Positions 6,098-50,010 of a stretch of DNA of 53,287 bases are shown one piece after another (positions within the stretch are counted from its first letter, which is position 1; each line of letters starts with the position of its first letter). The stretch covers positions 1-53,287 of the IMG/VR virus record IMGVR_UViG_3300005096_000121; one strand, given 5' to 3'. A model generated the notes under the pieces. It did no database searches, was not told the origin of the DNA, and saw only the letters and a list, made by a program, of their open reading frames with translations. The translations under genes were made by a program, and so were the position numbers. Source of the DNA: a virus.

Positions 6098-6328
6098 TTA
6101 TGTTTCTATGTTCCCAAAACGACCTATCGAAAGGCTTTTTTCTCGCAATAAGTCGGTAACATTTGTGGGTGATCCTATGTCAAAGTGTTCGGCCACAATC
6201 GTCCAACTCCACGCACCCGCTGTTCTACAATTCCACCCTGGTCGAAGTCTTTTGAACTCATAATCTTTCGGCACCTTTATCCCGTTAGACCGTAATTTCT
6301 CCACTAACTGCTCTACCTTTGTGGCCAC
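6098..6328 (-). CDS. Hypothetical protein, 76 aa
   Basis: The last gene of the minus-strand block. A GTG start is used, with GGGGGT about six bases upstream; the ATG two bases earlier is out of frame. The protein has an N-terminal charged helix, then a tryptophan-rich middle (RPGWNCRTAGAWSWTIVAEH) and a serine/leucine-rich end that could recognise a ligand or DNA. No family is recognised. The dispersed 20-bp motif lies in its leader. Confidence 0.55.
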   Translation of the reverse strand: MATKVEQLVEKLRSNGIKVPKDYEFKRLRPGWNCRTAGAWSWTIVAEHFDIGSPTNVTDLLREKSLSIGRFGNIET

Positions 6329-6350
6329 ATGTCACCCCCACATTCACAAG

Positions 6351-6370
6351 GATTAAATTTCACGGATTAC
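6351..6370 (+). repeat. Dispersed 20-bp motif, copy 2
   Basis: GATTAAATTTCACGGATTAC. It overlaps the stop codon of the small gene at 6360-6497 and lies upstream of the gene at 6098-6328. Confidence 0.75.
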
Positions 6371-6497
6371 TAGGTGTATCAATCACTCTAATCTTCATAG
6401 GTTTCGCTTTCTTGAAACGAACCTCAATAGTTCCCACCTTCTTGAATGGCACATGATTGACTTTGATGGGGAGATCATCTTTCTCAGACTCATCCAT
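6360..6497 (-). CDS. 45-residue charged protein
   Basis: A short frame supported by GGAAG before the ATG and by an 8-base overlap with the end of the preceding small membrane gene. The peptide starts acidic and becomes strongly basic, with beta-like alternation. No family is recognised. Its stop codon lies inside the 20-bp motif, so the motif and gene end are physically linked. Confidence 0.55.
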   Translation of the reverse strand: MDESEKDDLPIKVNHVPFKKVGTIEVRFKKAKPMKIRVIDTPSNP

Positions 6498-6597
6498 AGT
6501 ATCTTCCGATTAGGAGTAGCACTCTAAATAGAGTTCCCAGTACCACTCCTACGAGTATTCCTGTCACTAACAGAACTATGATCTCTTTTGCATTCAT
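6490..6597 (-). CDS. 35-residue single-TM peptide
   Basis: A single hydrophobic helix (about residues 6-24) flanked by charged residues, and a basic and aromatic C-terminus. The start overlaps the preceding stop (ATGA) and the end overlaps the next start, so it sits inside a translationally coupled chain of four very small genes. It is a probable inner-membrane peptide of unknown function. Confidence 0.55.
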   Translation of the reverse strand: MNAKEIIVLLVTGILVGVVLGTLFRVLLLIGRYYG

Positions 6598-6821
6598 TTT
6601 TTACTCTTGATGTAATCAAGCAACTTACTGAGATCATCCTTAACGGCTGTTGCACAATCAATGCACAGATAGACTGATTCACCTTGGACACATATATCAA
6701 TTCTACAATCCACATCAGCATAGCATCCTTGACAACCTTTAGGACCTACACGATGTCCAACACTTGCAACCTCAGCTAGTAGATCAGCTTTCTCTAGTTC
6801 TTCTCTTTCGTTTTCGGTCAT
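6594..6821 (-). CDS. Zinc-finger-like small protein
   Basis: 75 residues. An acidic N-terminal helix precedes a cysteine cluster: CQGC, a lone cysteine about five residues on, two more, and a final CIDC pair. This spacing fits one or two zinc-binding knuckles. The ATG at 6821 is preferred over an upstream TTG because GGAGA lies at proper spacing and it overlaps the previous stop. A regulatory or adaptor role is possible, but no family is recognised. Confidence 0.6.
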   Translation of the reverse strand: MTENEREELEKADLLAEVASVGHRVGPKGCQGCYADVDCRIDICVQGESVYLCIDCATAVKDDLSKLLDYIKSKK

Positions 6822-6940
6822 AGTAGTTTCTCCAAACGAATTAACAAGCAAAAAGTTGCTGCAAGGTTCGCCCCAACTGCGATGATTAACCCCAAAAAGA
6901 TTACATCTTCTCTACTATAATTTCTGAATGGATTGTTCAT
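6818..6940 (-). CDS. 40-residue single-TM peptide
   Basis: A polar, basic N-terminus (about 14 residues) is followed by one membrane helix (residues 15-34) and a short basic tail. The stop overlaps the next gene's start as ATGA. It is a second small membrane peptide in this cluster. A pinholin-like or antiholin-like role is possible but unproven. Confidence 0.55.
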   Translation of the reverse strand: MNNPFRNYSREDVIFLGLIIAVGANLAATFCLLIRLEKLL

Positions 6941-6949
6941 AATAATTTC

Positions 6950-7156
6950 CTAAAAAGTTGCAACCCAAGCTATGAGAAATCCGATAGACGCGAATCCGAT
7001 AGCTACAGTCCAACCCAGTATTGTTACCGTCCCTCTCATTATCTGAACTCCTGCAAGCAAACAATCCACATGATTTTCTAGCATGAGTATTTTGTCCTCT
7101 GAATTGTGTAACCTCGCATTAAGTTTTTCTAGTTTCTCAGTAGTCTGCTTTTTCAC
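6950..7156 (-). CDS. Coiled-coil plus single-TM protein, holin-like candidate
   Basis: 68 residues. Residues 1-35 form a charged heptad helix (KLEKLNARLHNSEDKILMLE) and residues about 42-66 form one long hydrophobic segment reaching the C-terminus. The GTG start overlaps the stop of the secreted SNase-like gene (GTGA), with a GGAG site. The layout resembles small phage membrane proteins such as spanin-like or antiholin-like factors, but no family is assigned. The neighbouring secreted proteins make a role in envelope passage plausible. Confidence 0.6.
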   Translation of the reverse strand: MKKQTTEKLEKLNARLHNSEDKILMLENHVDCLLAGVQIMRGTVTILGWTVAIGFASIGFLIAWVATF

Positions 7157-7632
7157 TGTCCTAATCTCCCTTTTTTGGTTGAAGATGCAAATCCTTCATC
7201 AATCAGCATCTGGTTAAGTGTCCGATACTTTCCTACGTAGATGTATCCAGGTATCCGATCAAATGAGAAAGCTTTTAATAGGTTTGTTCCACGAAGATTA
7301 AAATCCTTTCTGATTGGGATGAACAAACGAAGATCATCTGATTCTGACAATACCTTGCTCGCATAGATTGTTCCTAATCTAGCAATTCTCTTGTCATGCT
7401 CAGTACCTCGATTCAGTTCAGGACTCCAAGTCTTTATGAGTCGAATAGCCCAAACAGTGGAACCTCCAGGTAGTTTTACTTCGTGAGTATCTGCATCCCT
7501 TGAACGGTGAAATTTAATGGGAAGAGTGATACCAAATTCCGGACACACTTTAGGAGCAAATGCTTCCTGTGCTTGGAGTGTACTAGATATTGTGAGTAGC
7601 ACAAGAAGTATGGGTAGATAAAAGTATTTCAT
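7153..7632 (-). CDS. Secreted SNase-like (thermonuclease-fold) protein
   Basis: 159 residues. Residues 1-22 are a signal peptide (basic start, LPILLVLLTISS core, AQA-type cleavage context). The mature part follows the staphylococcal nuclease order: an RDADTHEV strand (metal-binding aspartate region), AIRLIKTWSPEL (equivalent to the catalytic 'RL.giD.PE' segment), then FNLRGTNLLKAF and a final LNQMLIDEGFA helix, which is a strong family ending. The match to catalytic residues is incomplete by eye, so activity is uncertain. It is probably exported and acts on nucleic acid outside the cytoplasm. A core copy of the dispersed motif (7507-7518) lies inside the gene. Confidence 0.7.
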   Translation of the reverse strand: MKYFYLPILLVLLTISSTLQAQEAFAPKVCPEFGITLPIKFHRSRDADTHEVKLPGGSTVWAIRLIKTWSPELNRGTEHDKRIARLGTIYASKVLSESDDLRLFIPIRKDFNLRGTNLLKAFSFDRIPGYIYVGKYRTLNQMLIDEGFASSTKKGRLGQ

Positions 7633-7646
7633 TAGCTATCTCCATT

Positions 7647-7691
7647 AAAAAAGCTGACTAGATCAAGTAGTTATACTCAACCTAGTCAGCT
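7647..7691 (-). terminator. Intrinsic terminator, minus strand
   Basis: Perfect 10-base arms AGCTGACTAG / CTAGTCAGCT followed, on the minus strand, by a run of T. It separates the gene at 7735-7995 from the SNase-like gene. Confidence 0.75.
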
Positions 7692-7734
7692 ACCACATAC
7701 CCGTCACGCCCTGACAAGACCTTTATACCATCTC

Positions 7735-7995
7735 CTAGTATCTTCCGCAACTGGGGTAAGCTTGAGGAGCAGGAGCTATTCTTTGAGCATAGCCTGTAGG
7801 AGTAAATACTCGACTCAATCCCCTACTCAGCCAGTACCCTGCTCGCCGTACTGGAGCAATAGCAACGAATCGAGGTCTAGCAGGCCCAACAGTCATGTAC
7901 TGCTCAGGTTGAGTGGCTGTGGGCTGCTGTGGGCAGGCATTAGCAACACTTGGACTACTCACACACAAAATCAGAATCACAAATAGAGTCTTCAA
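7735..7995 (-). CDS. Small secreted protein
   Basis: 86 residues with a clear signal peptide (LFVILILCVSSPSVANA, then CPQQ). The mature part is proline/alanine/arginine-rich with two cysteines. A cysteine two residues after the likely cleavage site leaves a lipoprotein possible, but the lipobox is poor. It ends just before a strong terminator. Function unknown; it is one of three probable exported proteins in this minus-strand block. Confidence 0.65.
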   Translation of the reverse strand: MKTLFVILILCVSSPSVANACPQQPTATQPEQYMTVGPARPRFVAIAPVRRAGYWLSRGLSRVFTPTGYAQRIAPAPQAYPSCGRY

Positions 7996-8032
7996 AGATC
8001 ACCTTCTTTCAGAGTTAGAACTTAGAGCATCA

Positions 8033-8104
8033 AGAACGTGACGGGAATCGAACCCGCTTAGGTGGGGTTGAAATCCCACTGCCTGACCAATCGGCATCAC
8101 GCTC
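8033..8104 (-). tRNA. tRNA, probable Glu (UUC), with an 8-base anticodon loop
   Basis: On the minus strand the acceptor arms GAGCGTG / CACGTTC pair over 7 positions (one G-U). The D arm is GCC..GGC, and the T arm is GCGGG-TTCGATT-CCCGT. The anticodon stem GTGGG / CCCAC leaves an 8-base loop, ATTTCAAC, rather than 7. Placing U33 normally gives UUC (Glu), while counting from the 3' side gives UCA. No CCA is encoded. Such phage tRNAs usually supplement host decoding. The extra loop base could be functional or a sign of decay. Confidence 0.8.
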
Positions 8105-8110
8105 CTTTGA

Positions 8111-8440
8111 TTAGGTATTCAACCAATCTTTCAAATCTTCAGCTTTAGGTTGTGGATACCGACTGAATCGCTCAATCATGTACAGCAACTTATGCTCATC
8201 CACGTAAGCACTTTCTTTGTTCTCAGTCCCACTATAACTTCTACCCCGAAGCATGGCGTAAGCTAACTGTGCTAATCGTGATTCTCTTCTCACTATCACA
8301 GACCGATGCCACCGCAATATTTCTCGGTCCTCATTTGTTTGTGCGTCTGTGCCAACTATTCGACTCTCTTCACGGCGAATAATTGTTGCTTCAGCAGCCA
8401 AGGATTTTATCTTAACTCGAAGCTTCTGTCTCCCGCACAA
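8111..8440 (-). CDS. Conserved phage-type small helical protein
   Basis: 109 residues, highly charged and helical. The order HRSVIVRRESR, LAYAMLRGRSY and then a conserved ES...D.HKLL helix resembles a widespread small phage protein family of unknown function ('HR..vR.EaR..~LAYg.LRG..Y..~E'). The TTG start at 8440 has a GGAG-like site about ten bases upstream, and no in-frame ATG exists. It is adjacent to the tRNA and the Acb2/Tad1-like gene, so an early or accessory role is likely. Confidence 0.65.
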   Translation of the reverse strand: MCGRQKLRVKIKSLAAEATIIRREESRIVGTDAQTNEDREILRWHRSVIVRRESRLAQLAYAMLRGRSYSGTENKESAYVDEHKLLYMIERFSRYPQPKAEDLKDWLNT

Positions 8441-8515
8441 CAGATCAAATCTCCATTTACTTTTGCATTCACAAATCGTGGATTCTCATCATACTACCTT
8501 TCTCGGATTTGGAAA

Positions 8516-8836
8516 TTAAACTGCGTGAGTACCTTCAACTTTTCTTGCTTCTCGATCCGCTGTCCGACTATTCAAAGAGCTTAGGGCTTGGTCCAAGTAC
8601 CTAATCGCTTCAGCGTTTGTTTCGCAATTAAACTTTCCTTGCTGATAAAATTGGATGCGATCAATTGCGGCAGAAATGATATCCTCAACAAACGCTCCGT
8701 TAGGTTCAATTCGATCTGCATCGCGATTCAGTGGACCGTTCTGCCAACCGATCGTAAAGCCTTGACCGAATGTCGTACCTCCCGCAGGATTTCCGTTTGC
8801 GTCCAGGAATTGGTTGCTTGTGAATTTACTTTGCAT
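8516..8836 (-). CDS. Acb2/Tad1-hairpin-like small phage protein (possible anti-defence)
   Basis: 106 residues. After an N-terminal IGWQNGPL strand comes NGAFVEDIISAAIDRIQFYQ, a conserved cysteine/asparagine turn (NCETNAEAI), a helix (YLDQALSSL) and the C-terminal signature RTADREARKVEGTH. This order (QNGP, NG..., then a helix ending R..R..RgVEGTH) is what I recall for small phage proteins placed in the Acb2/Tad1 hairpin superfamily, some members of which sequester cyclic nucleotide signals of CBASS or Thoeris. The assignment is from memory; the sponge function is inference and not every such family member is known to act this way. Confidence 0.55.
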   Translation of the reverse strand: MQSKFTSNQFLDANGNPAGGTTFGQGFTIGWQNGPLNRDADRIEPNGAFVEDIISAAIDRIQFYQQGKFNCETNAEAIRYLDQALSSLNSRTADREARKVEGTHAV

Positions 8837-8844
8837 AGTTTTTC

Positions 8845-9204
8845 CTAGTGAGGTTTACGAGGGACATCGATAGCATTGCCATCTTTGTCATAGAACAGAA
8901 CTTGATATTCTGAATCGACTGGACCAACATGATTGGAAGGAACATTGATGATGTTACTAGTCTGACTTCCAAAGTAGAAAGCACCACCAACTGCTGCCAC
9001 TGCTAGTAACTCTTTCCAACCAACTCCGTTGATTGTTGTGGTAGTTTTGGGAGAGATGTTCATGTCATCATCCCCGATATCTAATGCCTTGTGTGCTGAT
9101 CTAAGAAATAGCTTTCTCTTCTTGTCTTCACTCTCTTGATACTTACCATAGAGGTTTCCTTTGAGTCCTCCACTTCCGTAGATATCACTGTTTTCTTTTG
9201 ACAC
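8845..9204 (-). CDS. Single-TM protein, 119 aa
   Basis: A polar and charged N-terminal half (about residues 1-60) is followed by one hydrophobic segment (WKELLAVAAVGGAFYFGS, about 63-80) and a C-terminal soluble beta-like tail (YQVLFYDKDGNAID). It is likely N-in, C-out in the inner membrane. The GTG start lies inside the end of the upstream gene, in keeping with coupled translation. No family is recognised. Confidence 0.6.
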   Translation of the reverse strand: MSKENSDIYGSGGLKGNLYGKYQESEDKKRKLFLRSAHKALDIGDDDMNISPKTTTTINGVGWKELLAVAAVGGAFYFGSQTSNIINVPSNHVGPVDSEYQVLFYDKDGNAIDVPRKPH

Positions 9205-9361
9205 GTTTAGTTCCTCCTACTTCGTCGACACGAAAGACTCTGGGACTGAGGACGATCTTTGCTAGAGTCTCACTCAATGCTCTAGTCTCTTTGAGTGTTA
9301 TGTCGTCCGGAGAGTAGTCATTGATAAGACGACTAAGCCGTATTAGAAGTTCCTGATCCAT
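9185..9361 (-). CDS. 58-residue helical protein
   Basis: A short frame overlapping the genes on both sides (by 29 bases upstream and 20 downstream), which fits the compact layout here. It is charged and mostly helical (residues 1-40), with a basic C-terminus. No strong ribosome site is needed if translation is coupled. No family is recognised. Confidence 0.5.
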   Translation of the reverse strand: MDQELLIRLSRLINDYSPDDITLKETRALSETLAKIVLSPRVFRVDEVGGTKRVKRKQ

Positions 9362-9587
9362 AAAATTCTACTTTCTTGACGGAACCATCCTCATTGAATT
9401 CGATGGAACGCATAGTGTTTCCAAATTGCTTTGAACCATCGTTGTCAGCCATGAGACCAACCATCTCATCTTTGAATTGATCTCCCAACTCTAAAATATC
9501 GATTGCCTGGAGAGAGGTGATACGATCCCAATCCACCTCCTCCAGGCTTTCGATACTACGCTTCAATTCTTCTAGCAACTTCGCCAT
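9333..9587 (-). CDS. Hypothetical helical protein, 84 aa
   Basis: The N-terminal two thirds are acidic, amphipathic helix (LLEELKRSIESLEEVDW); the C-terminal part has two beta-like strands (MRSIEFNEDG, VKKVEFYG). No recognised family and no signal peptide. Located directly after the 63-residue gene, with only three bases between them, so probably translated together. Confidence 0.6.
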   Translation of the reverse strand: MAKLLEELKRSIESLEEVDWDRITSLQAIDILELGDQFKDEMVGLMADNDGSKQFGNTMRSIEFNEDGSVKKVEFYGSGTSNTA

Positions 9588-9590
9588 AGT

Positions 9591-9782
9591 TTAGCCATTC
9601 GTAGCGTTAGGCATACCAGTGGTGGCATAACGATTGGCTACCGACTGTTCGATATCCAACTCATCAAACTTACGATCTGCGATGATTGCTTGGCGAGATT
9701 GTTGCGAAACAAACGATTTGCCAAGAGCATCCACAGTAAGACCCTGCGAATTCTGCATCACCTCTTTGTTGTCAACTGCCAT
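9591..9782 (-). CDS. Hypothetical protein, 63 aa
   Basis: A small soluble protein with a glutamine/serine-rich middle helix (SFVSQQSRQAIIADRKFDEL). No motif or membrane segment is recognised. It lies 12 bases downstream of the protease gene and is probably in the same transcript. Confidence 0.55.
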   Translation of the reverse strand: MAVDNKEVMQNSQGLTVDALGKSFVSQQSRQAIIADRKFDELDIEQSVANRYATTGMPNATNG

Positions 9783-9794
9783 CTTACTAACTCC

Positions 9795-10937
9795 TTACTT
9801 GGGAACTAAATCATAATAGACAGGAGGACCAAGTTCCCTTGTTGGTATCTCTGTCACGTCTTTCGACTTCGGCAACTGCTCTAATACTATAGCAACTATT
9901 TGTTCTATTTGTCTACTTGATATTTCAGCAGTCTTTCCAGTTTCTCCTCGCTCTCCCTTTTCACCTTGGATTCCTTGGATACCCGACTCTCCCTGATCCC
10001 CCTTTGCTCCCCTCGGCTCCCCCTGGATCTCCTTAGGCTTACAACAAGAGTCTGAACAAGACTTTTCTAGTCTTTCTAGCCTCTTCTTGTTGAATGATGT
10101 CTCCCTCCTGAGTTCTTCAATCCTCCGCATAATGTCATCCATATTTGTGTCTGGAACCCTAGATACGGGCTGCATACCCCGATTGGGGGGTAATAGAGGC
10201 TGTATTGGCCCAATCACTGGTCCTGGGTTGGGTGTTTCTACTAGCATAGGCTGAGAGGCTCTAGGAGCCATTCTACGGTAGCCTGGAGGAATGCAGCTAT
10301 TACCACGACAATCGAAGCCAGCACTCTGTAGGAAGGCCTTGAAGGGTTCTCCATGGCTACCGTAAGAGAATCCACTACCGGACTTACCCCAGTGGACCGC
10401 CACTAGATTCCCTCGATCATCAAAAACTCCACCTCCTGAATCTCCTGATCTGGTCTGAGCAGTAGTCATCAGGCTGGTCAAAGATTGATTGGACACACTC
10501 CCAAGAATGTTACCTGGAGAGGCTTGAAAAGTATTAGAGCTTCCATATCCACAAACAGATATCTGACCTTGTGGATTGAGATTTATTCCGACTGGATCAG
10601 CTTTTGGATTGAGAATTACCAAAAGAGATAAGTCAGCTTCTTTGTTCATTTTGTAGAGACTAGCTCCGTGAGAATACCCACCATCCATGATGACAGTGAC
10701 TTTTCCCACACCATCATCAAAGATGTGAGCACAAGTGAGAATCAATCCTTTGCTTCTGTCAGACTTGATATCCACAAGAGTTCCAGAACCGCCGTCAATC
10801 ATCCCACTGTTGTAGTTCGTAATTCTACAAGAAGCTTGTCTTGGTTCTGCTGCTCGCAGTAACGTACTGAACAGAACAAGAACAACAAGAAGACTAGCAA
10901 AACCTCTATAAAACCAATGATTATCTACTGTTTTCAT
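9795..10937 (-). CDS. Secreted trypsin-like serine protease with collagen-like stalk
   Basis: 380 residues. A signal peptide or anchor (residues about 11-30) precedes a chymotrypsin-fold domain with the full triad: His71 in LTCAHIF, Asp102 in KEADLSLL and Ser167 in RSGDSGGGVF. A proline-rich linker, a coiled coil (MRRIEELRRETSFNKKRLER), a CCKP cysteine pair and nine Gly-X-Y triplets (about residues 325-352) follow, suggesting a trimeric stalk. ATG 10937 is chosen because AGGGAG lies just upstream; a start 15 bases earlier has none. It is probably exported. With no endolysin seen in the window, it may attack a protein envelope during lysis, though this is inference. Confidence 0.85.
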   Translation of the reverse strand: MKTVDNHWFYRGFASLLVVLVLFSTLLRAAEPRQASCRITNYNSGMIDGGSGTLVDIKSDRSKGLILTCAHIFDDGVGKVTVIMDGGYSHGASLYKMNKEADLSLLVILNPKADPVGINLNPQGQISVCGYGSSNTFQASPGNILGSVSNQSLTSLMTTAQTRSGDSGGGVFDDRGNLVAVHWGKSGSGFSYGSHGEPFKAFLQSAGFDCRGNSCIPPGYRRMAPRASQPMLVETPNPGPVIGPIQPLLPPNRGMQPVSRVPDTNMDDIMRRIEELRRETSFNKKRLERLEKSCSDSCCKPKEIQGEPRGAKGDQGESGIQGIQGEKGERGETGKTAEISSRQIEQIVAIVLEQLPKSKDVTEIPTRELGPPVYYDLVPK

Positions 10938-10966
10938 CGCACTCCCTTTCAATGAACTTAAAGAAT

Positions 10967-11419
10967 TCAGTCGGTTTTTCCTGGAGAAGGATGGGTGGGG
11001 GAAGCTAGTAGTAGTAGTGCGTACCCACCTAAATCTCTAATGGTGTCTTCCAAGGACTCTTCTACCTTCGGATTAGATTTCACGGTTAAGAGGTTATTCA
11101 TGCGGGCAATCTTATCTGACATTCGCACTAGGATTGCTTCGTTGTCTTTTAGGTGGGGTGCAAGGATCGGAGTATCCCAAACCGTACTTCCGTAGTCTAT
11201 GTTTTTCTTGAGCAGAGTTGTAATCCATTGAAGTCCTACAAGGGCAATTCTTTGCTGATCTTCTCCGAGTTCCCCGTGCAGTGCTTCATCTAAGAGGATG
11301 GTGTCTTCCCCGATTTGTGGGTACGTTTTGTCGAAGTTTTCTTCTTTCATCTTGGCCTTTATGTGATTGTCATAGGTCTTTATTTGTCTATTCGCATACT
11401 GAAACTCCCGAAATCCCAT
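10967..11419 (-). CDS. DUF1599 (Nmad1-type) protein
   Basis: 150 residues. The middle and C-terminus carry the DUF1599 pattern: LLKKNIDYGSTVWD (Asn-x-Asp-Tyr-Gly), VRMSDKIARMNNLL and ESLEDTIRDLGGYALLLL. This family has been named 'nucleotide modification associated domain 1' from its gene neighbourhoods in phages. ATG 11419 is chosen because GGAGAG precedes it; a TTG 15 bases upstream is weaker. It is the first gene of the minus-strand block. Its biochemical role is not established; a link to nucleotide pools or base modification is possible. Confidence 0.75.
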   Translation of the reverse strand: MGFREFQYANRQIKTYDNHIKAKMKEENFDKTYPQIGEDTILLDEALHGELGEDQQRIALVGLQWITTLLKKNIDYGSTVWDTPILAPHLKDNEAILVRMSDKIARMNNLLTVKSNPKVEESLEDTIRDLGGYALLLLASPTHPSPGKTD

Positions 11420-12121: not shown

Positions 12122-12535
12122 ATGTCCGATAAACCTAAAAGAAGAATAAAGAAGAAGGTGAAAGTGACGAGAGCAGCAAAGAAGGAGTTCTCAATATCCA
12201 AAATAGAACTGGTTGCGAGAAAGATATCTTCACGTACAGTGTCTCTGATTCCTAAAGAGCACATGACAGATGACAAGGGGGACAGAATGAAAGATAGAGT
12301 TCTGAATCGTAAGTTGGGGTTACTTACGGACTCTGTCTCTGAGGGCGTCTATGACATCCTCTACGCCTATAACAATGAGGTAGTAGAGTTTCTTGCATTT
12401 GCTTTGGTAAAGAGCAACACAATCTCTGTGAAGGTCACTAATGATAGTGGGCCGAAGACAGACATCAATCAGGACCGGCTAGCAGCCTTCCTAAAGACTC
12501 AACTAGACAAGTGGAGAAATTGCCCAGTTCACTGA
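12122..12535 (+). CDS. Hypothetical basic-N-terminus protein, 137 aa
   Basis: The N-terminal 25 residues are strongly basic (PKRRIKKKVKVTRAAKK), which suggests nucleic-acid contact. The rest is mixed alpha-beta with no recognised motif. A GAGGAG site precedes the ATG. The only plus-strand gene between two minus blocks, its stop overlaps the end of the convergent gene at 12529-13908. Confidence 0.65.
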   Translation: MSDKPKRRIKKKVKVTRAAKKEFSISKIELVARKISSRTVSLIPKEHMTDDKGDRMKDRVLNRKLGLLTDSVSEGVYDILYAYNNEVVEFLAFALVKSNTISVKVTNDSGPKTDINQDRLAAFLKTQLDKWRNCPVH

Positions 12536-13908
12536 GCAAGACTGTCTGGTATGGTTTCTGAACTAGAGTTGTCGGAAGGAAGCATATAATTAAATGCCTT
12601 TGCAAAGAAGGTTTGAAATATTCCTGTTGAAAGTTGAAGATTGATAGCCGCATCGGCTCTATCTCCCAACTCAAGTTGATCAGTAATTTGTCCTCGTGAT
12701 ACTGCGTAAGCGTTCCCGTTGTAGTAGTGGGCAGGAGCCAGTATGGCTTCGTCTATTAGTGTCCAATCTCCTGCGAAGGGAGTTACTGCAATTGATAGGG
12801 TGACGGTGCTGACTACAATATCGAAAGGTAAGGAGAAGAATCTATAAGTAGTTTGCCAATCGTCATCAACAGCAGCGTATTGAGGATTTACGATTGCGGC
12901 ACTACTTGTATATGTTGATCCGTCTAATTTTGTTCCAGTAACGCTAACATCTATTGCGTCGGATTGAGAACCTGATTTTGTGTTAGTGTGATCTTCAGGT
13001 AAGATTTGATCTCCCACCTCTATGGACACAAAATAACCTTTGCCGGAGGTTAGATTGGTTATGGGTCTTGTAACTGTAATTGCTTGGTCTTTGATAACCA
13101 ACGACTTGTTGCCTCGGAACCCTATGTTGTACTCTCCATAATCGGTACCAGCGTTACCCCCTGTCACAGTCCAGCCTGTCGGCACGCCATTTACAAACTC
13201 TTCAAATTCAGAATTTGAATCGATGATATTTTCCGATGAAGAGATTGGTATATTTTCCGAGTTTCCGGGTGATTCGACCTCACTTCGGTAGGCTAAAGTC
13301 TCTGGGAATAGTGCTATCCATTTCAGTAGCTCTGATCCGTCATTGGGGGCTGACACACATTCTAAGTAGGTGGGAGTTAATCCTTCCGTTATTGTGCCCT
13401 CACTCTCTAGCTCGTTGTAATGACGTGACGCTGGCCAGTTTCGGGCTGGGGAGGATATACCATCTAATCCTGATCCGAAATTGGCCACTAAAATTTCTAT
13501 TGTTGGTTTGCTTGAGAATCCTGTGGCACTAGCTGTAGCTATTACAGAGTTTGCTTTGATTGTTTGTGATTGAGATTTCATGTCACTCATAATTTCATTT
13601 ATTATGGCATCAAAATCACTATCAAATAGCACAAGATTTTCTAGCACAAAACTACTGTCTGACATCACGGTTCTAACTTCGCCTGTGAGACTATCAGCCC
13701 ACCTTTCAACATCCCTTTTGAATAGCTCCATGGTGGGATGCAAGTTTGTCACTAAATGATTCAGACTATTTGCCTCTAAGATGTTCTCACAATCATTGAT
13801 ACCAATTTGAATTTTGTTAAAGAAGTCGCCATTGCTATTGGCAAAGATGTTTAATGTCTTCACATACTTACCAATCACAGTGAAGAAGGTGGTGTAGTTA
13901 AGTGCCAT
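12529..13908 (-). CDS. Virion-like protein with carbohydrate-binding-like C-terminal domain, paralogue B
   Basis: 459 residues. It is clearly paralogous to the upstream gene (13963-15294): both start MALN.TTFFTV.GKY.K and both have the 'ND.E.ILE.N.L..L' segment. The middle third resembles a CBM4/9-type jelly roll: FEEFVNGVPTGWTVTGGN, then RGNKSLVIKD. The C-terminus of both ends in a 'YHNG...RG' and 'QSYF.K.F...LP' pattern. It is most likely a virion surface or fibre protein that binds glycans. It is transcribed against the neighbouring head genes. Confidence 0.65.
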   Translation of the reverse strand: MALNYTTFFTVIGKYVKTLNIFANSNGDFFNKIQIGINDCENILEANSLNHLVTNLHPTMELFKRDVERWADSLTGEVRTVMSDSSFVLENLVLFDSDFDAIINEIMSDMKSQSQTIKANSVIATASATGFSSKPTIEILVANFGSGLDGISSPARNWPASRHYNELESEGTITEGLTPTYLECVSAPNDGSELLKWIALFPETLAYRSEVESPGNSENIPISSSENIIDSNSEFEEFVNGVPTGWTVTGGNAGTDYGEYNIGFRGNKSLVIKDQAITVTRPITNLTSGKGYFVSIEVGDQILPEDHTNTKSGSQSDAIDVSVTGTKLDGSTYTSSAAIVNPQYAAVDDDWQTTYRFFSLPFDIVVSTVTLSIAVTPFAGDWTLIDEAILAPAHYYNGNAYAVSRGQITDQLELGDRADAAINLQLSTGIFQTFFAKAFNYMLPSDNSSSETIPDSLAQ

Positions 13909-13962: not shown

Positions 13963-15294
13963 CTAGGTGGCAAGAGAGTCGGCAATAGTTGGGCTACCAG
14001 AAGTTGGAAGTTGCACTCCAAAACCTTTTCGGAAGTAGGACTGAATAACTCCTGCTTCGTTGTTGGTGATGGTCACTGCAAAACGATCTCCAACAGAGAA
14101 TTCATCAACTCCTCTTAGGATGGAGAAATTCACTCCATTGTGATAGGAGGGAGCACTGACAACCACTTCGTCTAAGTAAGCTACGGTAGGTGTCAATGCA
14201 AAATTATTTATCAGCACTTTCACATAGACATCATTGGGATCGTATTGGTCGTCTAAGTACCAATGTAGATAAGCAGGAACAAACACATCACTAGAGGATG
14301 CTGGTAAATTGATAGTAGTTGTCTTTGTAAAGTAGACAGTGCTACCATCTGAGTTTTCTACACTCAAAACAATATCCAAAGCACTACTGGCTGGATCAGC
14401 ATCATTCCTACCGACCTGCAAACTTGTCATGTAAAGTTTGTTGGGGACTGTGCTAAAGACTTGCTGCTTCAATGCAGTTCCCGAAGTGTTGATCCGCAAC
14501 GAAGACGAACCTCTAAAGACATACTTGGCGGCATTGTTCTCTAGGTAGTCCGTAGTAACAGTTCCCGTCATGGTCCAACTATCAGGAACATTCGTCGTAG
14601 TGAAAGTTTCAAAGTCACTGTTCCCCACACCCAACGAGGACGGGTCACTATTGGCTGTCTGAATACTTGGTCCAGGTCCAGCAGCTTCATCTTGGATTTG
14701 ATACCCAGCCGTCTTAGCTGCTGTCGAGAACAAGTTCCATGTCTCTTGCCCATCCGAAGCCTTAGCAACGCATAAGGCGTAGATGGTGTCACTGGGTACT
14801 GCCATCTGGCTAGTAAGTCCTCGATACTCTTTCGTGGCAATACCACCAAACAGGGGAGAAGTCACTCCATCAAGCGTGGTGTCAATGACCAAGTCTCCGA
14901 TGGTTGTGGAGGTCACATTATCGCTCACACTCCCCACACTAATCACGGACGCTGTCACACTGTCAGACTCGTCATTGATGTACTCGATCAGAGCAAGAAG
15001 GATGGAGTTCAAGTCTTCTCCCTGCACGGGAATTTGCTCCCGAACAAAGTCTCGATCCGTGATTATTTCGGAAACTAGACCATTCATTCGCTCAATCCAA
15101 AGCACCACATTTGCTTTGAATCCGTTAAAGAGGTTTGGAATTGGTCCGAATAATCGGGTCAAATTGTTAGATTCCAAAATAGTTTCAATATCATCACTTC
15201 CAGTTTGAATGGTGGAAAGTAATCCATTGAACACATTCACGTTCTTGATGTATTTACCCAGTACGGTAAAGAAAGTCGTGGTGTTGAGAGCCAT
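13963..15294 (-). CDS. Virion-like protein with carbohydrate-binding-like C-terminal domain, paralogue A
   Basis: 443 residues. The N-terminal conserved block is shared with paralogue B; about residues 220-300 give SDFETFTTTNVPDSWTMTG and FRGSSSLRIN, the 'g.FE....P.gW......G..sl.i' pattern of CBM4/9 or related jelly rolls. Middle regions differ strongly from B, suggesting diversification of binding surfaces after duplication. ATG 15294 fits GGAG spacing and matches B; the adjacent ATG 15297 is possible. It is probably a surface or fibre protein. The region upstream is divergent with the protease/scaffold gene. Confidence 0.65.
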   Translation of the reverse strand: MALNTTTFFTVLGKYIKNVNVFNGLLSTIQTGSDDIETILESNNLTRLFGPIPNLFNGFKANVVLWIERMNGLVSEIITDRDFVREQIPVQGEDLNSILLALIEYINDESDSVTASVISVGSVSDNVTSTTIGDLVIDTTLDGVTSPLFGGIATKEYRGLTSQMAVPSDTIYALCVAKASDGQETWNLFSTAAKTAGYQIQDEAAGPGPSIQTANSDPSSLGVGNSDFETFTTTNVPDSWTMTGTVTTDYLENNAAKYVFRGSSSLRINTSGTALKQQVFSTVPNKLYMTSLQVGRNDADPASSALDIVLSVENSDGSTVYFTKTTTINLPASSSDVFVPAYLHWYLDDQYDPNDVYVKVLINNFALTPTVAYLDEVVVSAPSYHNGVNFSILRGVDEFSVGDRFAVTITNNEAGVIQSYFRKGFGVQLPTSGSPTIADSLAT

Positions 15295-15451
15295 CATAGT
15301 CTCCTTAGTTTTTCAGATAAAAAAGAGGCGAGTAAAGTAATACTTTCTTTCCCAGGAAAAAGCATTGACGTAACTTGTAGATTTGTAAAATTCATTACTG
15401 CTTAGAGATTATTATCTCAATAATTCAATCCTGAAACAAGTCAAGTCTTCT

Positions 15452-42491: not shown

Positions 42492-42860
42492 GTGATAGAA
42501 CTTTACACATTCATTCTTATGACAAATCCACCTATCGATCCTAATGACCCACAAATACATCCTCTGTGGCTTCTCGTCATCCTAGGACCTTTAGGGTCAT
42601 TAGCAGGCTGTGCTGCTCTTCTACGTACCGGAAAAGACTTAGACAAGAGATCATTCTTCTCTTCTATTCTTAACTCAGGTCTGATGGCAGTAGTCATCTG
42701 TGCTTTCATCTTCTACTACTACGGCACTTCCAATGTCTGGCTCCCCATAGCTCTCTCCATACTCTCAGGTCTAGGAGGAATTGATCTCATCAACTTCACT
42801 CTAGCTTTAGCTATGAAAGTGATGAAGACTCTAGTCGACTCCAAGACAGACCAACCCTAA
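42492..42860 (+). CDS. Holin candidate, three TM segments
   Basis: 122 residues from GTG 42492; ATG 42519 is an alternative that gives 113. Three hydrophobic helices (WLLVILGPLGSLAGCAALL, SGLMAVVICAFIFYYYG, PIALSILSGLGGIDLINFTL) with the short basic loop RTGKDLDKRSFF and a charged C-terminus resemble LydA-type class I/III holins. If correct it would control timing of lysis. No endolysin is next to it; the neighbour is a membrane PAS protein. Confidence 0.6.
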   Translation: MIELYTFILMTNPPIDPNDPQIHPLWLLVILGPLGSLAGCAALLRTGKDLDKRSFFSSILNSGLMAVVICAFIFYYYGTSNVWLPIALSILSGLGGIDLINFTLALAMKVMKTLVDSKTDQP

Positions 42861-42876
42861 AGGAACGATAACTACT

Positions 42877-43593
42877 ATGTGGAACCACATTCAAAAGATG
42901 AGTATGCACGGTGGTCATCCTTCTTGTGTCATCCCCACAAAGGAGGAGATGAACATCGCACGAAAGATAGCACTACCCACAGTCAATATATTACTCGTCA
43001 TAGTCACGGTAGTTGTCCTCAATGCTTTCTATAATCACAACGAGAAACTACGAAGTATCAATGCACTCTTGTCATTTCTAAAGGAGAGTGAAGTAGCTAT
43101 TCTCGTTACCGACACTGATCTCAATGTCACTGACTGCAATGATGCTGCTGCCAAACTCTTAGAAACTACAACCACCATTCTAAACAGAAGCAATGCTCAC
43201 AGATTGATCCCAGATCACCTAAAGGACAATCACGAGATAGCATTCCAAAAAGCACTCCAAGGACCTTCAGGCATTCTCAATGAAGTCAACTGCGAACTCA
43301 TCACATTCAGGGGGTCCAAAGTCCAAGTCTCCCTCATCATCGAGAAGATGGCTGTAAACCACAGAACACTTCTAGGAGTGAGAATCATAAGAAGGGACCA
43401 AATGAGAAGTATCGTAGTGAAGCACAAACCCCCAATAAAAAGTGAACTACTCCCTACTCCTCCATCCAATTCAGCTCTCCGTTGGTGCAAACAGTCTCCT
43501 AGTTGGGAACTAAAGCACGCTACCAAATCAAAAACTACTCCTAACTCTACAGAGCCTATTTGTACTTCTAGCTGCTCTCAGCACTGCAAATAA
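42877..43593 (+). CDS. Membrane-anchored PAS-domain protein
   Basis: 238 residues. One TM helix (ALPTVNILLVIVTVVVLNAF, about 35-54), a short signal helix, then a PAS fold: FLKESEVAILVTDTDLNVTDCNDAAAKLL (the 'iivtD.d.~i...N.aa..l' start), an EVNCELITFRGSKVQVSLII core and a GVRIIRRDQ end. No kinase, GGDEF or other output domain follows; the C-terminal 60 residues are low-complexity with several cysteines. A stand-alone sensor in a phage is unusual. Partners are unknown. Confidence 0.7.
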   Translation: MWNHIQKMSMHGGHPSCVIPTKEEMNIARKIALPTVNILLVIVTVVVLNAFYNHNEKLRSINALLSFLKESEVAILVTDTDLNVTDCNDAAAKLLETTTTILNRSNAHRLIPDHLKDNHEIAFQKALQGPSGILNEVNCELITFRGSKVQVSLIIEKMAVNHRTLLGVRIIRRDQMRSIVVKHKPPIKSELLPTPPSNSALRWCKQSPSWELKHATKSKTTPNSTEPICTSSCSQHCK

Positions 43594-47260: not shown

Positions 47261-48169
47261 ATGACCGCCACAATCAACCAAGATTCCATCCGCGAAACGC
47301 TCAACAAAGCCTACCCGTTCTCCGTCGATAAATTCCCGCTCTTTGGCCCAGAGTATGCCAAGACTTCCCATTATGGCCTATTCCGTGATGACACCGCTCA
47401 ATGTATAGGAAGTGCTGTAGGTAAGGGCTACCAACCTCACACATTGGACGATATTGCGACTCTAGCTGAGGCTGCTATGCAAGGCTTCTTAGCCGACAAT
47501 TATGGTGACGATGGTGCCAAACTCAATTGCCACTGGGCAAAGGGCCACCACGTAACTATCAGCCCAAGCGACAGCCATCGCCAATCGATCTTCGGCACAA
47601 AAGACAACATATTTCCCCGCTTCATTGTTCACGCCGGATATGGGGGCAAAGCCTTCTCAGCTTCCTTAGGCCTCTACCGCGATTGCTGCACTAATCTAGC
47701 AGAGCTAACCCCGGCAGGTGAGAGCGTATCAATCAAGATCCGCCATACTCACAGTCTTCGACCACGCCTTGAAGACCTAGTATCGTCGTTCCGGAATCTC
47801 GCATCAAAGTGGACAAGCATAGTCGTGACCGCCAGACAACTAGAGGCGACCGAAATTGATTTGCAAGATTTTATTCGGGAAGTCTATCCGCAAAGCTTGA
47901 CAAATACTCATCGGGCTAACACGATGCAGCATAATCGAGCCTATCGAATCGTTCAACGCATTATGAGTGAGCGGCTCAAAACAGGTAGGGACAATCCTAA
48001 CAACCTAAAAACAGCAACCGCGTGGGAAGCTTATAATGGTGTCCAAGGCTACGTACAGCATACGTCAACACGTAGGGGCAGACCAACCCACCACGATAGA
48101 GCTATCCTCGCCCTAGGTGACACAAACGTGAAACGAGCTATGCAGCACGCCCTAGCTTTATCCCAATGA
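47261..48169 (+). CDS. DUF932 family protein
   Basis: 302 residues. The pattern SHYGLFRDDTAQCIGSAVGKGYQP (N-terminal 'a.yRdD.~~~lg.v~~~Y.~v'), then PRFIVHAGYGGKAFSASLGLYRDCCTNL and IKIRHTHSLRPRLEDL matches DUF932, a widespread phage and plasmid early protein family of unknown function (sometimes linked to replication or restriction evasion). G+C-richer codon use than its neighbours. Confidence 0.8.
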   Translation: MTATINQDSIRETLNKAYPFSVDKFPLFGPEYAKTSHYGLFRDDTAQCIGSAVGKGYQPHTLDDIATLAEAAMQGFLADNYGDDGAKLNCHWAKGHHVTISPSDSHRQSIFGTKDNIFPRFIVHAGYGGKAFSASLGLYRDCCTNLAELTPAGESVSIKIRHTHSLRPRLEDLVSSFRNLASKWTSIVVTARQLEATEIDLQDFIREVYPQSLTNTHRANTMQHNRAYRIVQRIMSERLKTGRDNPNNLKTATAWEAYNGVQGYVQHTSTRRGRPTHHDRAILALGDTNVKRAMQHALALSQ

Positions 48170-48954: not shown

Positions 48955-50010
48955 ATGATAAATTACATAAAAAAACTATTGTTCCCGTCAAAGGATAGAA
49001 ATGCACCCTCTAAAAATGGCTACCTTGAATCCTACCAAGAGTTACCGTGCATAGGAAAGGTGAGAGGTCAGACACTAGCCAAGAGTGCTATGTTGATTGC
49101 TGCGGCAGGGAATCATAACCTGCTACTCGTGGGTCCACCTGGAGAGGGCAAAACGCATCTTGCGAGTACACTCCCCTCATTCCTTCCCCCACTATCATCT
49201 CACGAGGCAAACACCCTAGAGACTCTCTATTCCGAAGCGGGCTACAAATTCCATGACAAGTATCATCGACCATTCCGTTTAGTTCACCACTCAACATCTA
49301 TTGCAGGATTGATAGGCGGCTATTCATCTCTCACGAAAGGAATCGTACCTGGGGAGATTACCCTAGCTCATAATGGAGTCTTGTTTCTTGATGAGCTAAC
49401 AGAATTCAAACGCGAAACCTTAGATGCTTTACGACAACCTATGGAAGCTGGAGTGATCCAAGTAACACGCTCCGGACAACAACAGACGTTCCCCTCTCAA
49501 TTCCAACTAATCGCTGCAAGCAATCCTTGCAAGTGTGGCTATGCGGGAACGTCTCATTGCACTTGCTCCCCTTACGAAGTACGACGATACCTATCACGGA
49601 TCAGTGGACCTATTATTGACCGCATTGATATGGTTTCACGGATTCACCCCACAACCAAGGAAGACCTTTCTGCTATTCCCGTCGCGAATCAATCCAAGAC
49701 CTATCTGATAATGGTTTTGCAAGCTCGACTGATTCAAGCGAGACGCAATGGACCGGGAAGATACAACGCTCATTTATCTTACGACGAGCTACTGAAGCAA
49801 ACCCACTCTAAAGCAACCCTTCATCTCCTTAGCATGAAGGACAAGAACCCTAAATTTTCAACTAGAAAACTTATACGCACTTTGCGAGTCGCAAGAACCG
49901 TAGCAGACTTTCTTTCACCGCTAGAAACTACCAGGACGAATCACGTAGAGGTAGCTCTGAAGTTTGTAGACTTCGACCTAGCAGAACAATTCATGCCCAA
50001 GCAATCCTAG
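48955..50010 (+). CDS. ComM/YifB-like AAA+ ATPase lacking the N-terminal domain
   Basis: 351 residues versus about 500 in bacterial ComM. Matches the ATPase and C-terminal parts: KVRGQTLAKSAMLIAAAGNH, Walker A GPPGEGKT (60-67), TSIAGLIGGYSS, Walker B GVLFLDEL (141-148), LDALRQPMEAGVI, AASNPCKCGYAG with the CTCS cysteines, DRIDM, and a C-terminal 'FSTRKLIRTLRVARTVADF' segment. ComM is a hexameric branch-migration helicase in natural transformation. The N-terminal Lon-like/chelatase domain is missing. It probably acts on recombination intermediates of the phage or of the host. Confidence 0.85.
   Translation: MINYIKKLLFPSKDRNAPSKNGYLESYQELPCIGKVRGQTLAKSAMLIAAAGNHNLLLVGPPGEGKTHLASTLPSFLPPLSSHEANTLETLYSEAGYKFHDKYHRPFRLVHHSTSIAGLIGGYSSLTKGIVPGEITLAHNGVLFLDELTEFKRETLDALRQPMEAGVIQVTRSGQQQTFPSQFQLIAASNPCKCGYAGTSHCTCSPYEVRRYLSRISGPIIDRIDMVSRIHPTTKEDLSAIPVANQSKTYLIMVLQARLIQARRNGPGRYNAHLSYDELLKQTHSKATLHLLSMKDKNPKFSTRKLIRTLRVARTVADFLSPLETTRTNHVEVALKFVDFDLAEQFMPKQS

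What the first reader, a model, noticed from the sequence alone, without database searches (positions are those of the whole stretch)
6098..11419. Minus-strand cassette of secreted and membrane proteins that may form an unusual lysis or host-envelope system
Three probable exported proteins (trypsin-like with collagen stalk, SNase-like and a small secreted protein) and several single-TM peptides occur in one tightly coupled block, while no endolysin could be found anywhere in the window. In hosts whose envelope contains structural protein rather than a thick murein layer, a secreted protease with a trimeric stalk could do the job of an endolysin, with the small TM peptides as timing or export factors. 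This is a hypothesis built from gene content and absence.
Basis: inference. Interest (0 to 1): 0.8.

Follow-up and report, generated by a model that had tools for sequence, protein, structure and literature searches.

The report
Secreted-protease island in a planctomycete-type phage
A virus of (probably) planctomycete bacteria carries an inserted gene island with an exported trypsin-like protease on a collagen stalk and a known anti-defence 'sponge' (Tad1), and its relatives carry unrelated kinds of protease beside similar small secreted and membrane proteins while none shows a recognisable wall-cutting lysis enzyme, which hints that these viruses may use proteases to break out of their hosts.

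Summary
The minus-strand block is real, but it is not one cassette. It is a ~5.3-kb accessory island between terL and a virion-type gene that lie close together in relatives. A strong terminator (7691-7652) divides it. Unit 1 (11419-7735) holds a DUF1599-like protein, the exported trypsin-collagen protease, small proteins, Tad1 (Thoeris/CBASS sponge, supported by sequence and fold), a tRNA and an 86-aa secreted protein. Unit 2 (7632-6098) holds an SNase-like exported protein and small membrane peptides. Its best clue survives: no endolysin was found, here or in six other contigs (family searches with controls). Among relatives picked by capsid protein, not protease, peptidases of unrelated classes (papain C1A, metzincin) sit beside small secreted and membrane proteins: 5 of the 6 contigs over 30 kb, window included, against 1 hit in 3.05 Mb of other viral contigs. 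The nearest protease homologues are all in Planctomycetota, often next to an NlpC/P60-like hydrolase. Most likely the protease attacks the host envelope, probably for exit; the rest is counter-defence and cargo. Protease-for-endolysin replacement is possible but unproven: planctomycetes have peptidoglycan, and a weak holin candidate lies outside the block.

The parts
10967..11419 (-). 150-aa protein, DUF1599 / phrog_1485-like, first gene of unit 1
   Evidence: phrog_1485 E 1.4e-13; Pfam DUF1599 E 0.0039, below cut-off
9795..10937 (-). exported trypsin-like protease: signal-type helix, Trypsin_2 domain, Pro-rich linker, coiled coil, 9 Gly-X-Y triplets
   Evidence: Pfam 1.3e-14; AF2 trypsin domain with pLDDT about 90, Foldseek top hits Rv3671c/DegP/DegS/HtrA1; triad invariant
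9591..9782 (-). 63-aa protein of unknown function
   Evidence: ORF with AAGGAG, 12 bp after the protease gene; no homologue in the fetched loci
9333..9587 (-). 84-aa protein of unknown function
   Evidence: ORF geometry; no homologue in the fetched loci
9185..9361 (-). 58-aa protein of unknown function
   Evidence: overlaps its neighbours by 29 and 20 bp
8845..9204 (-). 119-aa protein with one hydrophobic segment
   Evidence: sequence; AGGAGG before its GTG start
8516..8836 (-). Tad1, Thoeris anti-defence 1 nucleotide sponge, 106 aa
   Evidence: tblastn to SBSphiJ7 Tad1 1e-12; PDB CmTad1 8kbb 1.4e-8; phrog_2428 1e-20; 20 best Foldseek hits are Tad1 structures
8111..8440 (-). 109-aa basic protein of unknown function (TTG start)
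   Evidence: ORF with GGAG; no family match
8033..8104 (-). tRNA-like gene with an 8-nt anticodon loop
   Evidence: Rfam RF00005, 38.8 bits, gathering 29; not called by ARAGORN
7735..7995 (-). 86-aa small secreted protein (signal-type N-terminus, C-terminal SCGRY), last gene of unit 1
   Evidence: sequence; placed like the small secreted proteins after Tad1 in L130 and G001
7652..7691 (-). intrinsic terminator ending unit 1
   Evidence: 18-bp stem, TTTTT tail, dG -25.3, z -6.3
7153..7632 (-). 159-aa exported SNase-like protein, first gene of unit 2; the Asp of the 'D-T/S-P-E' motif is replaced
   Evidence: phrog_452 E 2.4e-5; alignment to phage SNases
6950..7156 (-). 68-aa coiled coil plus C-terminal TM segment
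   Evidence: sequence; 4-bp overlap with the SNase gene
6818..6940 (-). 40-aa single-TM peptide
   Evidence: sequence
6594..6821 (-). 75-aa Cys-rich, zinc-finger-like protein
   Evidence: weak DUF3795 match E 0.0038, below cut-off
6490..6597 (-). 35-aa single-TM peptide
   Evidence: sequence; 4-bp overlap
6360..6497 (-). 45-aa peptide
   Evidence: 8-bp overlap
6098..6328 (-). 76-aa protein, last ORF of the island
   Evidence: ORF; no family match apart from a chance-level Pfam hit
42492..42860 (+). holin-like multi-TM protein outside the block; possible lysis partner
   Evidence: phrog_6384 holin E 1.8e-4; no relative in viral contigs

Best explanation
The block is an accessory island inserted between terL and a virion-type gene of a tailed phage whose host is most likely a planctomycete. 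Shown: it has two parts divided by a terminator; it contains Tad1, a tRNA, a trypsin-fold protease with intact triad and collagen stalk, and small secreted and membrane ORFs. Inferred: the protease is exported by the Sec system, trimerises through its coiled coil and Gly-X-Y stalk, and cleaves host envelope proteins in the periplasm or at the surface. In most homologues from Pirellulales and related viral contigs a C-terminal membrane anchor stands where this protein has the collagen stalk, so the enzyme would normally be held at the membrane. It would act late, with the small secreted protein and a holin-type membrane protein, to open the envelope for exit. Relatives fill the same role with a papain-like or metzincin peptidase. 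Tad1 protects the infection earlier by binding defence nucleotides. The SNase/TM unit is separately expressed cargo of unknown role.
For: Island: in 17 loci with terL (fewer distinct phages, since several are the same contig) the next conserved gene starts -3 to +2559 bp after terL, while the window has about 6.9 kb there. Tad1. Protease. Same gene set in L130 (protease with collagen, 71 aa, TM protein, Tad1, small secreted) although the proteins are diverged. Peptidase swapping: G001 (papain-like by motif only), G006 and L163 (metzincin HExxHxxGxxH plus Met-turn; profile matches reprolysins at 3e-4), G008, G009 and L164 (papain C1A; profile matches chymopapain and cathepsins at 7e-14). Enrichment against 229 other viral contigs. 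No endolysin family in 7 contigs while control genomes ring. Pairing with an NlpC/P60-like hydrolase (profile matches PDB 3kw0 at 6e-7) in L130, L246, L247, L250, L253, L255, partly in L249, and in Pirellulales chromosomes. Membrane anchors in homologues. Host: the 15 best genome hits of the protease are Planctomycetota.
Against: No expression, localisation or lysis data. In the window the protease is co-transcribed with Tad1, which suggests expression before lysis. The window lacks the NlpC/P60-like partner. The papain and metzincin proteins of relatives have no obvious signal peptide, so they may not do the same job as a secreted trypsin. Planctomycetes have peptidoglycan, which a protein protease would not cut. 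An endolysin of an unknown family cannot be excluded. The motif search was tuned on the same peptidases. One large relative (G007) shows no peptidase.
Confidence: 0.42

Rival explanations
1. A counter-defence and host-takeover island. Tad1 blocks Thoeris/CBASS signalling; the exported protease, SNase-like protein and small membrane peptides alter the surface or periplasm, for example to remove receptors, exclude other phages or attack incoming DNA. Lysis is done by other genes.
For: Tad1 lies in the same unit as the protease. The island is absent at this place in relatives. It carries a tRNA and small orphan ORFs typical of accessory regions. Exported nuclease-like and single-TM proteins fit exclusion functions (inference).
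Against: Peptidases recur in relatives that lack the island, near TM and small secreted genes beside terminase or replication genes. Trypsin homologues sit beside an NlpC/P60-like hydrolase.
Confidence: 0.3
2. The phage has an ordinary holin-endolysin system whose endolysin belongs to an undescribed family (holin candidate at 42492-42860), and the protease is unrelated cargo.
For: Holin match E 1.8e-4. Most of the window's proteins match no family. Planctomycetes have peptidoglycan (PMC5394234).
Against: No endolysin family in seven contigs. No gene near 42.5 kb resembles a hydrolase. The recurrent peptidases would remain unexplained.
Confidence: 0.22
3. The protease is a virion or entry protein: its collagen stalk resembles phage tail fibres and it digests host surface protein at infection.
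For: The collagen repeat matches PHROG tail fibre families. The gene lies between terL and virion genes.
Against: A signal-type N-terminus and, in homologues, C-terminal TM anchors and a fused thioredoxin domain point to the periplasm. It is on the strand opposite the structural genes.
Confidence: 0.06

Closest known systems
Tad1 (Thoeris anti-defence 1; SBSphiJ7 Tad1, CbTad1, CmTad1)
   Same: beta-sheet plus two-helix fold and C-terminal Arg/VEGT motif; best sequence and structure match
   Different: shorter N-terminus (106 aa against 123-138 aa in PDB chains); ligand binding not tested
HtrA/DegP/DegS-type trypsin-like periplasmic proteases (Trypsin_2) and Rv3671c
   Same: protease fold, His-Asp-Ser triad, N-terminal export or anchor segment
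   Different: no PDZ domain; Pro-rich linker, coiled coil and collagen stalk instead; phage-encoded
Canonical holin-endolysin-spanin cassettes of dsDNA phages
   Same: in relatives, an enzyme flanked by small TM proteins and a secreted protein, beside terminase or replication genes
   Different: the enzyme is a peptidase of the trypsin, papain or metzincin type; no muralytic family; in the window the parts are dispersed
Pseudomurein endoisopeptidases PeiW/PeiP of Methanothermobacter phages
   Same: a peptidase that serves where the host wall is not ordinary murein (own knowledge; also PMC12596118). The window's TerL has PhiF3, psiM2 and psiM100 among its best phage matches
   Different: different peptidase family and target; no homologue of Pei was found or specifically searched for here
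Phage-like cluster of Pirellulales chromosomes (L285-L299)
   Same: closest homologues of the window protease (up to 48% identity), upstream of a terminase-like gene
   Different: C-terminal membrane anchor instead of collagen; NlpC/P60-like gene directly upstream; looks domesticated

Membership tests
Tad1 sponge | sequence similarity to experimentally defined Tad1 | tested here: met
   SBSphiJ7 Tad1 tblastn 1e-12; PDB Tad1 1.4e-8
Tad1 sponge | N-terminal antiparallel beta-sheet and two C-terminal helices | tested here: met
   AF2 model and top 20 Foldseek hits all Tad1, Foldseek E 7e-5; fold as described in PMC12043709
Tad1 sponge | binds gcADPR or cyclic nucleotides and inhibits Thoeris/CBASS | not testable with these tools
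   needs a binding and plaque assay
Trypsin-like (S1/Trypsin_2) peptidase | fold and His-Asp-Ser triad | tested here: met
HtrA/Deg protease | C-terminal PDZ domain | tested here: not met
   no PDZ match; the C-terminus is coiled coil plus collagen
Thermonuclease (SNase) | fold and family match | tested here: inconclusive
   phrog_452 E 2.4e-5, no Pfam hit, no PDB hit of note; not modelled
Thermonuclease (SNase) | intact active-site residues | tested here: not met
   the Asp of IDTPE is Trp in WSPE; other motif residues kept
Holin-endolysin lysis cassette | a muralytic endolysin | tested here: not met
   six endolysin families absent from seven contigs with controls positive; no lysin among PHROG/Pfam matches listed (one search shows only 25 of 49 families)
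Holin-endolysin lysis cassette | holin | tested here: inconclusive
   42492-42860, phrog_6384 E 1.8e-4, outside the block; TM peptides in the block have no family
Holin-endolysin lysis cassette | spanins | not tested
   no systematic search made
Holin-endolysin lysis cassette | late expression and requirement for lysis | not testable with these tools
   needs RNA-seq and knockouts

The most novel reading that the evidence does not exclude
A group of uncultured planctomycete-type tailed phages has no muralytic endolysin and uses exchangeable protein peptidases (trypsin-collagen, papain C1A, metzincin), each with a small secreted Cys/Arg-rich partner and small membrane proteins, to break the host envelope.
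Probability: 0.28. Interest if true: 0.85.

Novelty: new variant of a known kind. Interest (0 to 1): 0.6.

Why it matters
How phages lyse planctomycetes is, as far as I could find, undescribed: a search of the open library for planctomycete phages gave no relevant paper. If proteases stand in for endolysins, it would be a new lysis principle for bacteria and would say which envelope component holds these cells together. It would be testable in the cultivated species Planctopirus limnophila. Even if that fails, the work identifies a Tad1 homologue in a presumed planctomycete phage and shows that peptidases of unrelated classes recur in one phage group.

Tried and rejected
Searching viral contigs with the full protease mainly returned collagen-repeat matches; it was repeated with protease-domain alignments. 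TerL as a single query found nothing; an alignment was needed. The capsid protein and the protease had no match in 50,697 named phages, nor had the NlpC/P60-like and trypsin proteins of L246, so no annotated phage gives the answer. The M23 hit at 13486-13581 (12 bits, below cut-off, inside the virion-type gene) was rejected as chance. The holin candidate had no relatives that would show a neighbouring endolysin. Promoter scan: fewer sites than in shuffles (8 against 12.6), so no promoter is claimed. The papain-like assignment of the G001 protein (P0001, with L185) rests on motifs only: no Pfam or PDB match. Host evidence from the capsid protein in 392 Planctomycetota genomes was weak (5 distant matches). 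PADLOC matches of the protease to RT-protease/LmuA models reflect the shared trypsin fold.
Full report
What is there. The window is a 53,287-base linear virus record. The minus-strand run from 11419 to 6098 contains 16 ORFs with small gaps or overlaps, most with Shine-Dalgarno-like motifs. Unit 1 holds a DUF1599/phrog_1485-like protein, the trypsin-collagen protease, three small ORFs, a single-TM protein, a 106-aa protein, a 109-aa protein, a tRNA (Rfam RF00005, 38.8 bits) and the 86-aa secreted protein. Unit 2 holds an SNase-like exported protein and six small ORFs, three of them with one TM segment.

The 106-aa protein is Tad1: tblastn to SBSphiJ7 Tad1 1e-12, PDB CmTad1 1.4e-8, phrog_2428 1e-20. 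A model built from 12 homologues (mean pLDDT 77.7) has Tad1 structures as its 20 best PDB matches. Tad1 proteins sequester gcADPR and cyclic nucleotides of Thoeris and CBASS (PMC12043709). Part of the island is therefore counter-defence.

The protease. The Trypsin_2 domain is sound (E 1.3e-14). The AlphaFold model is good over residues 30-216 and resembles Rv3671c, DegP, DegS and HtrA1. H71, D102 and S167 are invariant among eight homologues. There is no PDZ domain. Behind a Pro-rich linker come a predicted coiled coil (266-297) and nine Gly-X-Y triplets. Homologues L246, L247, L250, L253 and L255 end in a hydrophobic segment with a short basic tail, and two (L250, L253) carry a thioredoxin-like region (Pfam match tested for L250), so the family looks periplasmic and often membrane-anchored; the collagen stalk of the window and of L130, L251, L252, L254 and L256 takes the anchor's place. 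Signal peptides and TM segments were judged from sequence hydrophobicity and the AF2 helix, not by a dedicated predictor.

Host. A scan of about 85,000 prokaryote species genomes with the protease alignment gave 36 loci; the best 15 are all Planctomycetota, mainly Pirellulales, including Adhaeretor, Lacipirellula and Bythopirellula. There the protease follows an NlpC/P60-like gene (profile matches PDB 3kw0 at 6e-7) and lies upstream of a terminase-like gene, in what looks like a conserved, domesticated phage cluster. The same pair occurs in viral contigs L130, L246, L247, L250, L253 and L255, partly in L249. The window has no homologue of the NlpC/P60-like gene. The capsid protein has only distant matches in 5 of 392 Planctomycetota genomes, so a planctomycete host is likely but not proven.

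The island is accessory. Using the capsid protein and TerL, 17 loci with terL were found, representing fewer distinct phages because several loci are the same or near-identical contigs. In all of them the next conserved gene begins -3 to +2559 bases after terL; the window has about 6.9 kb there. Tad1 is present in two of these relatives, but upstream of terL on the plus strand. None has a trypsin in the DNA held.

Lysis. Six endolysin families (Amidase_2, Phage_lysozyme, M23, M15_3, NLPC_P60, SLT) were searched in the window and six other contigs (G001, G006-G010); control genomes rang, but none of the seven had a hit above cut-off. PHROG and Pfam scans of the window proteins listed no lysin (the list was cut at 25 of 49 families, and the second half of the window was not scanned against Pfam as a whole). 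A weak holin match lies at 42492-42860. Reading the relatives' genes showed a pattern. L163 and G006: secreted ~200-aa protein, metzincin peptidase (HExxHxxGxxH, GIM turn, ERCGxPDY before the catalytic part), small secreted protein with CPGGVCP, TM protein. G008: TM protein, secreted protein, papain-like peptidase, small secreted protein. G009: TM protein, secreted protein, papain-like peptidase (Pfam 1.1e-5), small secreted protein ending RRGLFGRRR. L164 and L185: papain-like peptidase with TM proteins, upstream of terL. G001: papain-like by motif, Tad1, small secreted protein, terL. Profiles confirm C1A papain for G008/G009/L164 (7e-14) and support metzincin weakly (3e-4); the G001/L185 protein is unconfirmed.

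Is it more than chance? Among contigs chosen by capsid protein (15, counting the window), six carry such a peptidase, and five of the six longer than 30 kb (window, G001, G006, G008, G009; not G007), in 0.45 Mb. The same motif search gave one hit in 229 other viral contigs, 3.05 Mb. The motifs were tuned on these proteins and many contigs are fragments, so the ratio is indicative. L130/G010 and L246-L265 were found with the protease itself, and L164 and L185 through TerL and then the peptidase search; they are not counted.

Reading. It loses on details: the island is composite, Tad1 is in it, the unit is split, and planctomycetes are now known to have peptidoglycan (PMC5394234), so a protein protease alone would not dissolve the wall. 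My best explanation is an envelope-directed protease used for exit, sharing an accessory island with counter-defence and other cargo (0.42); the main rival is a pure counter-defence and surface-modification island (0.30).

Noticed in passing
L285-L299 (Pirellulales genomes); L246, L247: A phage-like cluster (NlpC/P60-like, secreted trypsin, 95 aa, 227 aa, TM/coiled-coil, ParB-like, P-loop ATPase, terminase-like, portal-like) recurs across Pirellulales, in several genomes next to the same 'VQRLLSL' gene; it looks like a domesticated prophage or a gene transfer agent.
   Followed up: partly
8033-8104 (-): tRNA-like gene (Rfam) with an 8-nt anticodon loop, missed by ARAGORN; a degenerate tRNA or one with an unusual anticodon.
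   Followed up: partly
12529-13908 and 13963-15297 (-): Tandem pair of related genes (34% identity) on the minus strand among virion genes; relatives have one copy or none found.
   Followed up: partly
L242:16149-18887: The terL of relative G001 is 912 aa and has an intein-like insertion starting at its Walker A motif (GGGKALALDTLVPTPNGWTTI...).
   Followed up: no
42877-43593 (+): TM plus PAS-domain protein (Pfam PAS_4, 6.3e-5) next to the holin candidate.
   Followed up: no
6950-7156 (-): 68-aa protein with coiled coil then C-terminal TM, a topology like XhlA-type lysis proteins, but without a significant family match.
   Followed up: partly
47261-48169, 48955-50010 (+): DUF932 protein and a protein that looks like a Mg-chelatase/ComM-type ATPase, judged by eye, in the early region.
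   Followed up: no
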